Assembly (NCBI GenBank): GCA_020726025.1
Contig: DYTH01000003.1
Span: forward strand, 1-53,407
Reading direction: 5' to 3'
Source: Syntrophus aciditrophicus
GTDB lineage: Bacteria; Desulfobacterota; Syntrophia; Syntrophales; UBA5619
Length of the DNA: 53,407 nt
This document shows, in pieces, positions 302 to 8,926 of this stretch. The notes beneath the pieces were generated by a model that was not told the origin of the DNA, searched no databases, and worked only from the letters and a program-made list of their open reading frames with translations. The first letter of the stretch is position 1; each line of letters starts with the position of its first letter. Position numbers and translations under genes: made by a program.

Positions 302-2290
302 CTACATTTCTCCTCCCGACCCGGCGAAGGAAAGGGCTTCCTCCAGCCACGTATCCATCTTCAACACCTCCCGGCGCTGACGGTAAGCGAGCCGCTGGGC
401 GGTTCTCTGCGCCTGGAAAAGCGCGATTCTGGCCAGCACGTCCACACCCGGCGTCTTTCCCTGAAGCGCCGCGGCAAGTCTTTTCCTGAGCAGGGGCGAG
501 ACAAAACGCCGGATCAATTCGTCTTCCACGCTCATGAAGGCCTGGGCGGCGCCAGGGTCTCCCTGTCTCGCGCAACGGCCGAAGAGCTGGCGGTCGATGC
601 GCCCCGATTCATGGCGCTCGGTGGCTATCACATGGAGACCACCCATCTCCGCGACGCCGTGTCCGAGCTTGATGTCGGTGCCTCGTCCGGCCATGTTCGT
701 GGAAATGGTTACCCTCCCCTTTTCACCCGCAGCGGCCACGATCCTCGCTTCCTCGCTGTGGCGGACGGCGTTGAGAAGATTATAGTCGAGACCTCTGGCG
801 GCAAGCATGAGGGCGAGTTTTTCACTGACCGTGACGCTTCTTGTTCCTACAAGCACCGGACGTCCGGTATTCCGCAGCATCTCGATTTCATCGACCACGG
901 CCTCGAACTTCTCCCGCTCCGTGGAAAATATCCGGTCGGGCATGCTTACCCTTATGCAGGGGCGATTGGTAGGAATCGTCATGACAGGGAGGCGGTAAAT
1001 ATGCCAGAACTCCGCAGATGCCTCTTTTGCGGTGCCGGTCATTCCGCTCAATTTCCTGAAAAACCGGAAAAACCTCTGGAAGCTCAGTCTCGCCAGTGTC
1101 TCGCTCGGGTCGTTCACGGTAATGCCTTCCTTTGCCTCGATCGCCTGGTGCAATCCGTGCCGCCATGTCCTGTTCGGCATCAATCTACCGGTAAACTCAT
1201 CGACAATCGCAACCTTGCCGTCCTGGACGACATACTGCTGATCCCGCTTGTAGAACTCCCTTGCCGTCAGAGCCTGCTTTACCAGTTCCTCCCGCCTGGC
1301 CGACCCGCGCCATATTCCATTGAGCATCACCGACTGTTCGTCAACCTTTCGCTCCCCCTCCTTCGTGAGCGAAATCTCCTTATATCGCTGGTTGATTAAA
1401 TAATCCCGACCGGCGTCCAGTGGCTCAACGAGCCGGTGGGTTATTTCGCACGCCTCGACCAGCGAGGAGTTCTTCTGAGGACGGGAGATGATAAGCGGGG
1501 TTACCGCCTCGTCGATCAGGACGCTGTCCGCCTCATCGACAATGGCCGTGTCCAGCCCCCGCAGCACCGTATTGTCGGCGGCTGTCGGGGGACGCAGAAG
1601 CTGGCGGAGCTGCCGTCTTGAAGCGTTGTGCAGCTCTCCGATTATCAGCCTGTCCCGGAGAAAATCGGCCACCAGTTCCTTGAGCGTCGTATAAACAACA
1701 CCTTTCTCATAATTGGCACGCCTATCCTTCGGCTCCATCTGCGAGGTCACACAGCCTACGGAAACACCGCAGAACGAATAAAAGTCCTTCATCTCCAAGG
1801 CATCCCGGTCGGCAAGATAGTCGTTCACCGTGACAAAATGGAAGGGTCGCCCCGTCCAGGCGGCCAGCACCGCCGGCAGACAGGCGGTAAGACTCTTGCC
1901 TTCACCGGTGGCCATCTCGGCAAGGTAGCCGTGGTAGAGGGCGAGCGCCCCCATCACCTGAACCGGATAGGGGAGCATGCCGGTGGTTCGGTTGGACGCC
2001 TCGATCATATACGCCAGGGCCTCGGGCAAAAGCTGGTCAACCTCCTTCCCCCGGCGGCGAAACTCTGTTTGAAGTTCGCCGAGGTTCCCCCTCAGTCTGC
2101 TGTCGGATAAATAAACAAGCTTCCTGGCGTCTTCACTAATTTTGTCCGCATCTGCCTTCAACAAACGGGCGACGGAGGGACGTCGTTTGTTCCACCCCTC
2201 AAACCCGTGGATAAGCGCGTCCATCCCCTGATGGAGCTTTTCAGGAATCACAATGCGGGTACGGTGATAATCCTGGGACGGGACTCTCAT
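302..2290 (-). CDS. SecA-like ATPase (paralogue, C-terminally shortened)
   Basis: Motifs MATGEGKSLTA (Walker A), VTVNDYLADRDA, DEADSVLIDEA (Walker B), TNMAGRGTDIKLG, GRCARQGDPGAA. Start MRVPSQDYH chosen because its ATG overlaps the upstream stop (TGATG). About 662 aa; no C-terminal Cys-rich zinc tail. Confidence 0.93.
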   Translation of the reverse strand: MRVPSQDYHRTRIVIPEKLHQGMDALIHGFEGWNKRRPSVARLLKADADKISEDARKLVYLSDSRLRGNLGELQTEFRRRGKEVDQLLPEALAYMIEASNRTTGMLPYPVQVMGALALYHGYLAEMATGEGKSLTACLPAVLAAWTGRPFHFVTVNDYLADRDALEMKDFYSFCGVSVGCVTSQMEPKDRRANYEKGVVYTTLKELVADFLRDRLIIGELHNASRRQLRQLLRPPTAADNTVLRGLDTAIVDEADSVLIDEAVTPLIISRPQKNSSLVEACEITHRLVEPLDAGRDYLINQRYKEISLTKEGERKVDEQSVMLNGIWRGSARREELVKQALTAREFYKRDQQYVVQDGKVAIVDEFTGRLMPNRTWRHGLHQAIEAKEGITVNDPSETLARLSFQRFFRFFRKLSGMTGTAKEASAEFWHIYRLPVMTIPTNRPCIRVSMPDRIFSTEREKFEAVVDEIEMLRNTGRPVLVGTRSVTVSEKLALMLAARGLDYNLLNAVRHSEEARIVAAAGEKGRVTISTNMAGRGTDIKLGHGVAEMGGLHVIATERHESGRIDRQLFGRCARQGDPGAAQAFMSVEDELIRRFVSPLLRKRLAAALQGKTPGVDVLARIALFQAQRTAQRLAYRQRREVLKMDTWLEEALSFAGSGGEM

Positions 2291-7253: not shown

Positions 7254-8926
7254 TGTCGTTCGACCTCCTTGATTTCTACTCCTCTGTTCATCAGCAGAGC
7301 CCCTTCCGCCAAATCAAGCTGGTGGAGAGCTTTCATGAATTTGACAAGGGTTTCCGCCTCGCCCTCCCGTGCGTTGATCAGATTTTGCTCCCGTTCAAAC
7401 AGCATCCGGCTGTTGCTTTTTCCAATACGGAATCTTTCCGTTTCCGTATCGAGCAGTTTTCTGGTCATCTCGACAACCCCTGATTGTTCTTTGACCTGTT
7501 CCAGACTATTGTCCACATTCCGCAACGCGGTCTCAATAGAATTGGCGAGGGAGACTTCCACTGCCTTTACCTCCAGCAAAACCTGACGTCTGCGTTGCAA
7601 CGCGGCTGCATGTTCGCTCGAAGCCTTTTTATTCCCCCCCAACGGTATTTTTAATTCAAGTCCGACCATCCAGGATGGATGCTTCGCCTTCGTCGCGTCG
7701 TTGAATGGATCGGCGTATCTGTCGGTCAGTCCATTCAAGAAGTAACTGCCCTTCAAGTCAATTTGCGGCCATAACTGGTTTTTGGCATAGGCAAGCCGGA
7801 CATCCTCACGTTCGACTTTTTTTCGTACCGCCAGATACTCGCCGCGGAGTTTAAAAGATCGGTTGAGACTCTCTGCAAAATCTCGGTGGGTAACCTCTAT
7901 CGACGGACGATCCACTGTTTCGATCTCTTCTCCTGCCAGAGCCACTGAGGTGGAAAGGAATGTTCGAACCATGTTCATGGCGGCCACCACGGCCTGTTTA
8001 GCCTCGCTGACCAGCGACCGGCGGGCGGCGAGCGCTGCTTTGGCCTCGATAACCTCGGTCTCGGCCATTTTTCCCGTCTTGAGCCGGACAAAATTGTCAT
8101 GAAGAATTTTTTCGGCAGTCCGCGCCGAATCCCGACGCAGCAATAATTTTTCACGGGCGAGAAACAGATCCCAGTAAGCGGACATCGCCTCGGCAACCAC
8201 CCGCATGGCCTGCATCCGGTAGTTCTGGAAGGCGATGTCCCTATCCGCTTCGGCAATGCGTATCGGCGCCATTGTCGGCGCAACACCGGCATCTTTCAGA
8301 AGTGGCTGGCTGATGCTGGCCCCGAGCGTTGTCTGTTTGTACTTGTCGAATCCGTAGCCTTCATTCACGCTATCGGAAAAATCACGGTACGAATATGCCA
8401 GCTTGACCCTCCCGCCTACCGGGAGCAGTTCCTCGACGGCAAGTTGCTGGCTGTAACTGTCTTCCCAGAACTCCGGCAGAACAAAACCTCCGTTATTGAA
8501 AGTTGACATCATCTGTTGGGCGGTATTTTTTCTTTTATCGTACTGGAGCTGATAAGTCCCGAGCATCACAGGTTCAAAAACAGCCTTCGCGCCCCTGACA
8601 GCCTCACGGGTAACCGCCCACTCCGCATCTTGAAACGCGATCTGCTCGTTGTTTCTCATGACGCTGACGACATAGTCGTTCAAACTGACCAAAAGAGTTC
8701 GGGGAACCTTTGTGACTTGCGACGGCTTTCCGGCAATCCCGGCGACAGATTCTTTCGGTGATCCTTTCATCTCATCCGCTGCCGTAATGATTCCGGGGAA
8801 GCCCATACAAATCATTGCGGCAATCAGACAATGAGCAAATCGTCCCATCCCGGGGACGCTCCGTGATACGGCTCCGCTTCTATTTGCGGGCAAACGCCCC
8901 GATCGTAAAGACAAACCATCGCTCAT
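7250..8926 (-). CDS. TolC-family outer membrane efflux protein
   Basis: TolC-like repeat organisation with long helices (LGASISQPLLKDAGVAP..., AYWDLFLAREKLLLRRDSARTAEKILHDNFVRLKTGKMAETEVIEAKAALAARRS). ATGA overlap with downstream adaptor. Start MSDGL preferred for its upstream GGTGGAG. Confidence 0.88.
   Translation of the reverse strand: MSDGLSLRSGRLPANRSGAVSRSVPGMGRFAHCLIAAMICMGFPGIITAADEMKGSPKESVAGIAGKPSQVTKVPRTLLVSLNDYVVSVMRNNEQIAFQDAEWAVTREAVRGAKAVFEPVMLGTYQLQYDKRKNTAQQMMSTFNNGGFVLPEFWEDSYSQQLAVEELLPVGGRVKLAYSYRDFSDSVNEGYGFDKYKQTTLGASISQPLLKDAGVAPTMAPIRIAEADRDIAFQNYRMQAMRVVAEAMSAYWDLFLAREKLLLRRDSARTAEKILHDNFVRLKTGKMAETEVIEAKAALAARRSLVSEAKQAVVAAMNMVRTFLSTSVALAGEEIETVDRPSIEVTHRDFAESLNRSFKLRGEYLAVRKKVEREDVRLAYAKNQLWPQIDLKGSYFLNGLTDRYADPFNDATKAKHPSWMVGLELKIPLGGNKKASSEHAAALQRRRQVLLEVKAVEVSLANSIETALRNVDNSLEQVKEQSGVVEMTRKLLDTETERFRIGKSNSRMLFEREQNLINAREGEAETLVKFMKALHQLDLAEGALLMNRGVEIKEVERQ

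What the first reader, a model, noticed from the sequence alone, without database searches (positions are those of the whole stretch)
302..8926. Candidate undescribed export system: TolC + HlyD + GAF-HlyD + RRE/M50-HlyD + dedicated SecA paralogue
Seen: five same-strand genes. The outer two junctions overlap (ATGA at 7250-7253, TGATG at 2290) and the M50/GAF pair are separated by 1 bp, implying co-expression. Established: TolC and HlyD-type adaptors normally join an inner-membrane ABC or RND pump, and SecA normally works with SecYEG. Here no ABC, RND or MFS pump is encoded. The motor-like component is a SecA paralogue and the main polytopic component is an M50-type protease with adaptor sequence. 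Inference: a hybrid machine in which the SecA-like ATPase (perhaps with SecYEG or the M50 protein as conduit) feeds substrate into a TolC duct, with intramembrane proteolysis and peptide recognition built in. I know of no named secretion-system type with this composition.
Basis: partly seen in the sequence, partly recalled or inferred. Interest (0 to 1): 0.88.

Follow-up and report, generated by a model that had tools for sequence, protein, structure and literature searches.

The report
Exporter operon for giant surface proteins
The five genes belong to a widespread gene set reported in 2015 with no known role, and comparing hundreds of genomes shows it travels with, and often sits beside, genes for giant proteins that begin with a short "LEPR" tag, so it is probably the machine that exports them.

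Summary
In detail: TolC, HlyD, GAF-HlyD, RRE-M50-HlyD and a short SecA paralogue lie on one strand with the reported junctions. The SecA gene starts at 2290 (662 aa), not 2512.

The gene set is not undescribed. Kamneva et al. 2015 (PMC4452313) reported it and already proposed SecA as ATPase and M50 as pore, but called its biological role "completely unknown" and named no substrate.

New here is a strong substrate assignment. Proteins with the N-terminal LEPR-XLL motif (NF012209; open frames up to about 20,000 aa) co-occur with this M50-HlyD. In the window's phylum 6 of 7 M50-positive genomes have LEPR, against 2 of 291 others (p=2e-10). In Verrucomicrobiota it is 14 of 15 against 2 of 231 (p=8e-20). 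The discordant cases mostly resolve on inspection. Twenty-seven LEPR genes lie within 25 kb of an M50-HlyD gene. The host genome has two LEPR proteins.

The tag is a basic tail followed by FxLExLEPRxLLS[AG]DP, with no Sec-type hydrophobic core. All M50 proteins keep the zinc motif. The SecA family keeps its motor motifs but lacks the C-terminal region (wing domain, two-helix finger).

Best reading: leader-guided export of giant surface proteins, in which SecA and M50 replace an ABC pump. Transport itself is untested.

The parts
7250..8944 (-). TolC-family outer-membrane channel (564 aa; start may be 8926)
   Evidence: PF02321 E 7.6e-30, TIGR01844 1.2e-26; ATGA overlap with HlyD
6375..7253 (-). 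HlyD/RND-type periplasmic adaptor (292 aa)
   Evidence: TIGR01730 115.8 bits, above cut-off 94.9
4448..6304 (-). GAF-HlyD fusion (618 aa): GAF about residues 192-322, HlyD about 388-586
   Evidence: present in 74 of 80 related loci
2290..4446 (-). RRE-M50-HlyD fusion (718 aa), inner-membrane metalloprotease with adaptor half
4132..4389 (-). RRE/PqqD-like domain, residues 20-105 of the M50 protein
   Evidence: PqqD hits in 8 of 16 homologues; AF2 pLDDT 85.5; top Foldseek hits are RRE-leader complexes
3802..3816 (-). HEFGH zinc motif, residues 211-215
   Evidence: HExxH in all 74 family members checked
3505..3528 (-). NPLLRFDG second metal-ligand motif, residues 307-314
   Evidence: NP[LI][LI]R[FYW]D-type motif in at least 66 of 74 members
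302..2290 (-). Secondary SecA (662 aa): motor and preprotein-crosslinking domains, no C-terminal wing or two-helix finger
1892..1906 (-). Walker A GEGKS of the secondary SecA
   Evidence: sequence; GEGK columns at least 97% conserved in 60 family members plus the window

Best explanation
The operon encodes a dedicated exporter for giant repetitive surface proteins that carry an N-terminal LEPR-XLL leader. Proposed working: the cytosolic RRE domain of the M50-HlyD protein binds the basic, non-hydrophobic leader. The short SecA, using its intact ATPase and preprotein-binding domains, pushes the unfolded chain across the inner membrane. The M50 site probably clips the leader near LLS[AG]-D-P. The adaptor parts of M50-HlyD, GAF-HlyD and HlyD form a periplasmic duct to TolC, so export is continuous. 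SecA plus M50 thus take the place of the peptidase-containing ABC pump of microcin/type I export. Shown: gene set, domain make-up, conserved catalytic motifs, co-occurrence and adjacency with LEPR giants in two independent genome samples, and lack of a Sec-type hydrophobic core in the tag. Inferred: transport, leader binding, cleavage, and which membrane pore is used.
For: Co-occurrence: 298 genomes of the window's phylum, M50-HlyD at 340 bits or more in 7, LEPR in 6 of those against 2 of 291 others, p=2e-10. Of the two extras, G136 carries a fragment of the secondary SecA and G103 shows no such motif. The one M50-positive miss, G204, is recovered with an extended profile. Replication in 246 Verrucomicrobiota: 14 of 15 against 2 of 231, p=8e-20; the exception G565 has a LEPR gene 386 bp from a short SecA. 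Of 50 genomes chosen by M50 across many phyla, 43 have LEPR, plus G314. None of 39 genomes without the system hit with the extended profile. Linkage: 27 LEPR ORFs within 25 kb of M50-HlyD, 26 within 8 kb, 22 of 27 on the same strand. In G253 and G209 the pieces read as TolC, LEPR giant, DUF3467, GAF-HlyD, M50-HlyD, SecA, HlyD (in G209 over two contigs). Host genome: two LEPR proteins of more than 1,100 aa. Leader: L0, E1, R3 and L5 invariant in 63 of 63; K+R 21.5% against D+E 8.8% upstream; peak hydrophobicity median 0.67 against 2.10 for TolC N-termini. RRE and M50 motifs. An LssB-type type I ABC is over cut-off in only 1 of the 8 system-bearing genomes.
Against: No transport, cleavage or binding experiment exists. 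Six of the 50 M50-selected genomes, including the closest named relative (Desulfuromonas, 63% identity), show no LEPR hit; four of them have giant ORFs cut by the contig end, and two are unexplained. Many LEPR genes lie far from any M50-HlyD. Several giants carry RTX repeats, a type I secretion hallmark. The RRE fold match has weak E-values. The host's own LEPR genes are on other contigs.
Confidence: 0.76

Rival explanations
1. Two-step export. The short SecA feeds LEPR proteins through the ordinary SecYEG channel, as accessory SecA2 proteins do in Gram-positives, and the M50/HlyD/TolC part only processes or moves them onward from the periplasm.
For: The SecA keeps the preprotein-crosslinking domain and all motor motifs. 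A canonical Sec apparatus is present (SecD, SecF and signal peptidase at 48.2-52.0 kb).
Against: The whole family lacks the region after about residue 608 of canonical SecA, which holds the wing domain and the two-helix finger that engages SecY (assignment of that region from general knowledge). No dedicated SecY was noticed beside the operons (not searched for systematically). The leader has no hydrophobic core.
Confidence: 0.3
2. LEPR giants leave by a classical type I ABC exporter using C-terminal RTX signals; the operon does something else and merely co-inherits with them.
For: RTX repeats occur in a giant of the host genome and in the giant beside the G154 operon. TolC and HlyD proteins are shared with type I systems.
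Against: TIGR03375 is over cut-off in only 1 of 8 system-bearing genomes against 12 of 290 others. The linked genes are the SecA/M50 set, not an ABC. The conserved feature is at the N-terminus.
Confidence: 0.08
3. The operon matures and exports a small RiPP-type peptide, with the RRE-M50 protein as leader protease.
For: The M50 part matches the daptide protease family NF041824 (E 5e-48) and has an RRE-like domain.
Against: The score of 164 bits is well under the family cut-off of 300. No RiPP-modifying enzyme was seen beside the operon. Weaker M50 relatives with no short SecA also lack LEPR proteins, so the RiPP-like branch looks separate.
Confidence: 0.06
4. A small-molecule efflux pump with a regulatory GAF protein.
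For: TolC and RND-type adaptors.
Against: No RND, ABC or MFS pump in the gene set; a SecA-type protein motor is conserved in 68 of 80 loci; tight link to giant proteins.
Confidence: 0.03

Closest known systems
Secondary SecA_DEAD / type I-related locus (Kamneva et al. 2015, PMC4452313)
   Same: Same gene set: secondary SecA_DEAD, HlyD, Peptidase_M50 with HlyD, GAF-HlyD, sometimes an OEP protein. The window's operon is a member.
   Different: That paper gives no substrate, leader, RRE domain or SecA truncation in the text read here, and calls the biological role unknown.
Type I secretion and microcin export by peptidase-containing ABC exporters (general knowledge)
   Same: Adaptor plus TolC duct, and a protease built into the inner-membrane component that could act on an N-terminal leader.
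   Different: No ABC protein; the motor is a SecA and the protease is M50, not C39.
Accessory Sec systems SecA2/SecY2 (TIGR03714, TIGR04397, TIGR04221)
   Same: A second SecA dedicated to special substrates.
   Different: Scores far below every SecA2 cut-off; lacks the C-terminal region; linked to HlyD and TolC.
LEPR-XLL domain proteins (NF012209)
   Same: The host genome's giants carry this motif over cut-off.
   Different: Known as a named motif of long proteins; no exporter link found in the two held papers that mention it.

Membership tests
Kamneva 2015 secondary SecA_DEAD locus | Secondary SecA_DEAD besides canonical SecA | tested here: met
   window SecA plus canonical SecA on contig C133
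Kamneva 2015 secondary SecA_DEAD locus | Adjacent Peptidase_M50/HlyD, GAF-HlyD and HlyD proteins | tested here: met
   compared with PMC4452313 sections 16-17
Type I secretion system | ABC exporter as energised inner-membrane component | tested here: not met
   none in the operon or the ORFs scanned; TIGR03375 under cut-off in the host genome
Type I secretion system | HlyD-type adaptor and TolC-type channel | tested here: met
Accessory Sec SecA2 (TIGR03714/04397/04221) | Match above the family cut-off | tested here: not met
   521 against 930, 557 against 1085, 466 against 725 bits
Canonical SecA (TIGR00963) | Full length with helical wing domain and two-helix finger | tested here: not met
   region after residue 608 of the host's canonical SecA missing across the family; 630 bits against cut-off 800
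M50 site-2 metalloprotease | HExxH and second metal-ligand motif | tested here: met
RRE (PqqD-like) domain | PqqD-type sequence and beta3-alpha3 fold | tested here: met
   (fold match weak by E-value)
RRE (PqqD-like) domain | Binding of a leader peptide | not testable with these tools
   needs a binding assay
Daptide metalloprotease NF041824 | Match above cut-off | tested here: not met
   164 against 300 bits

The most novel reading that the evidence does not exclude
A distinct protein secretion type: SecA-driven, SecYEG-independent, one-step export through an M50-HlyD/TolC conduit of giant proteins of up to about 20,000 residues, addressed by a cleaved LEPR leader read by an RRE domain.
Probability: 0.42. 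Interest if true: 0.93.

Novelty: new variant of a known kind. Interest (0 to 1): 0.8.

Why it matters
The locus was published in 2015 with no known role, and how bacteria export proteins of 5,000 to 20,000 residues is largely open. Linking the two gives a named substrate class, a candidate leader motif and a simple deletion test. If confirmed, SecA would power a tripartite TolC-type exporter in place of an ABC pump, and a family of the largest bacterial proteins would gain an export route. The locus spans many phyla, including Verrucomicrobiota and Burkholderiales with cultured members, and Methylobacterium according to the 2015 paper, so it can be tested.

Tried and rejected
(1) "Undescribed system": rejected after finding PMC4452313. 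(2) Whole-genome download for local work: not available. (3) G103 as a LEPR-positive, M50-negative genome: its hit shows no such motif. (4) G204 as M50-positive without LEPR: a genuine LEPR start was found with the extended profile. (5) Type I LssB exporter as carrier of LEPR giants: not supported. (6) Treating every M50-HlyD hit as the same system: weaker hits (under 290 bits) that were checked lack the short SecA and LEPR, apart from G565, so they were kept apart. (7) G434's weak extended-profile hit (E 1.3e-3) shows no motif on inspection and is not counted. (8) Full-length AF2 model of M50-HlyD: moderate confidence (pLDDT 73, pTM 0.48, only 11 sequences), used only for domain topology. (9) Text searches for any paper joining LEPR or giant proteins with SecA/HlyD found none in the held open-licence library; subscription papers and preprints are not covered.

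Full report
1. Observation. The SecA start is best placed at ATG 2290 (662 aa), not 2512: the TTGATG junction and the family length of about 660 aa agree. The operon sits at the very left end of its contig (G000:C46), so the gene after SecA cannot be seen.

2. Parts. The M50 protein carries three units. (a) An N-terminal RRE/PqqD-like domain: PqqD hits in 8 of 16 homologues, a confident model (pLDDT 85.5) and top Foldseek matches to lasso-peptide RRE-leader complexes, though with E-values near 0.02. (b) A polytopic M50 domain with HExxH in all 74 members checked and an NPLLRFD-type motif in at least 66. (c) An adaptor half matching MacA and MexA. The SecA keeps Walker A, the DExD box, the TNMAGRGTDI motif and the arginine-finger region, but the whole family lacks everything after about residue 608 of the host's own canonical SecA. 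From general knowledge that region holds the wing domain and the two-helix finger. The host also has a normal SecA.

3. Already published. [quoted passage not shown] They suggested SecA as ATPase and M50 as pore, and stated that the broader role is completely unknown. The window's operon is a member of this locus family. A wider scan gave 80 loci from about ten phyla, with GAF-HlyD in 74, SecA in 68, HlyD in 53 and TolC in 38 (loci cut by contig ends included); the commonest order is that of the window.

4. Substrate link. A lead recalled from memory, the LEPR-XLL motif of very long proteins (NF012209), was tested. The host genome has two such proteins, both longer than 1,100 residues; one runs off its contig and the other runs into a masked stretch near its contig's end. 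In 298 genomes of the host's phylum, M50-HlyD at 340 bits or more occurs in 7 and LEPR in 8, overlapping in 6 (Fisher p=2e-10). Every discordant case was examined: G136 has a genuine LEPR start and a fragment of the short SecA; G204 has a genuine LEPR start that the stock model missed; G103 shows no such motif. These resolutions were made after the fact, so the stated p-value uses the raw counts.

5. Replication. In 246 Verrucomicrobiota, M50-HlyD at 340 bits or more occurs in 15, LEPR in 16, overlap 14 (p=8e-20). Two of the 14 (G316 and G300) were already known carriers; removing them leaves 12 of 13. M50 scores are bimodal (362 bits or more against 256 or less). One of the two LEPR-only genomes, G565, has a LEPR gene 386 bp from a 640-aa short SecA. 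Of 50 genomes picked by M50 across phyla, 43 have LEPR and one more appears with the extended profile. Of the six left, four have giant ORFs cut by the contig end near the operon and two are unexplained. Relatedness and horizontal transfer mean the genomes are not independent, so the p-values are a guide only.

6. Linkage. Twenty-seven LEPR ORFs in 20 genomes lie within 25 kb of an M50-HlyD gene, 26 of them within 8 kb, and 22 of 27 on the same strand. In G253 the order is TolC, LEPR giant (9,795-aa frame), DUF3467, GAF-HlyD, M50-HlyD, SecA, HlyD; G209 shows the same order over two contigs; in G154 a 15,080-aa LEPR frame precedes GAF-HlyD, M50-HlyD, SecA and HlyD.

7. The tag. In 63 N-termini the motif is F-x-[LFVI]-E-[PAT]-L-E-P-R-[VLI]-L-L-S-[AG]-D-P, with L, E, R and L invariant (partly by selection, since the pattern LExRxL[LM] was used to collect them). 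It follows a basic stretch (K+R 21.5%, D+E 8.8%; median 29 residues), and its peak hydrophobicity is far below that of the TolC N-termini from the same loci (0.67 against 2.10). It therefore does not look like a Sec signal peptide. A leader read by an RRE domain and clipped by the M50 site is the simplest use of the parts, but this is inference.

8. Rivals. A classical type I ABC carrier is not supported: the LssB family is over cut-off in 13 of 298 genomes and in only one of the eight system-bearing ones; other ABC subfamilies were not excluded. SecYEG as the inner pore remains open. A RiPP role is weakened because the M50 branch scores under the daptide cut-off and the weaker M50 relatives checked in the host's phylum, which have no short SecA, have no LEPR proteins either.

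9. Verdict. What is new, within the open-licence library searched, is the assignment of LEPR-XLL giant proteins as substrates and the motif as candidate leader. The phylum name was not told by the tools; the closest named homologues are Thermodesulfobacteriota.

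Noticed in passing
L090, L095, L105, L108, L110, L111, L112, L114, L115, L118, L122, L124, L127; also L038:17477-17800, L042:1513-1836: A small DUF3467 protein (PF11950, about 105-140 aa) sits just upstream of GAF-HlyD in many operons (13 of 80 loci), and in G253 between the giant LEPR gene and GAF-HlyD. 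It looks like a sixth component of one operon variant; the window's variant lacks it.
   Followed up: partly
L040:12071-16767 and L052:14349-20845: A hybrid histidine kinase (PAS-HisKA-REC-Hpt) and REC-GGDEF-EAL proteins, 51-52% identical between the two phyla, lie beside the operon and the giant gene. This suggests cyclic-di-GMP control of giant surface proteins.
   Followed up: partly
L006:1-7131: Another giant protein upstream of a LEPR gene in the host genome, with ELWxxDGT repeats, a laminin-G-like domain and RTX repeats; its 5' end is cut by the contig.
   Followed up: partly
G319, G331, G333, G326: Genomes with 4 to 6 copies of the M50-HlyD gene also have 4 to 8 LEPR proteins, as if each system serves its own giant. 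Counter-example: G339 has 13 LEPR hits and one M50-HlyD.
   Followed up: no
window 11364-20988: Five tandem genes with PMT_2 (mannosyltransferase-like) domains, three of them with TPR repeats; possible surface-protein glycosylation genes a few kb from the operon.
   Followed up: no
window 48202-52018: Canonical SecD, SecF and signal peptidase I genes with a DUF456 gene between them, on the same contig as the secondary SecA operon.
   Followed up: no
window 23366-24370: RNA ligase (PF09414) with a PHA02142 OB-fold domain, a phage-like gene in a bacterial chromosome region.
   Followed up: no
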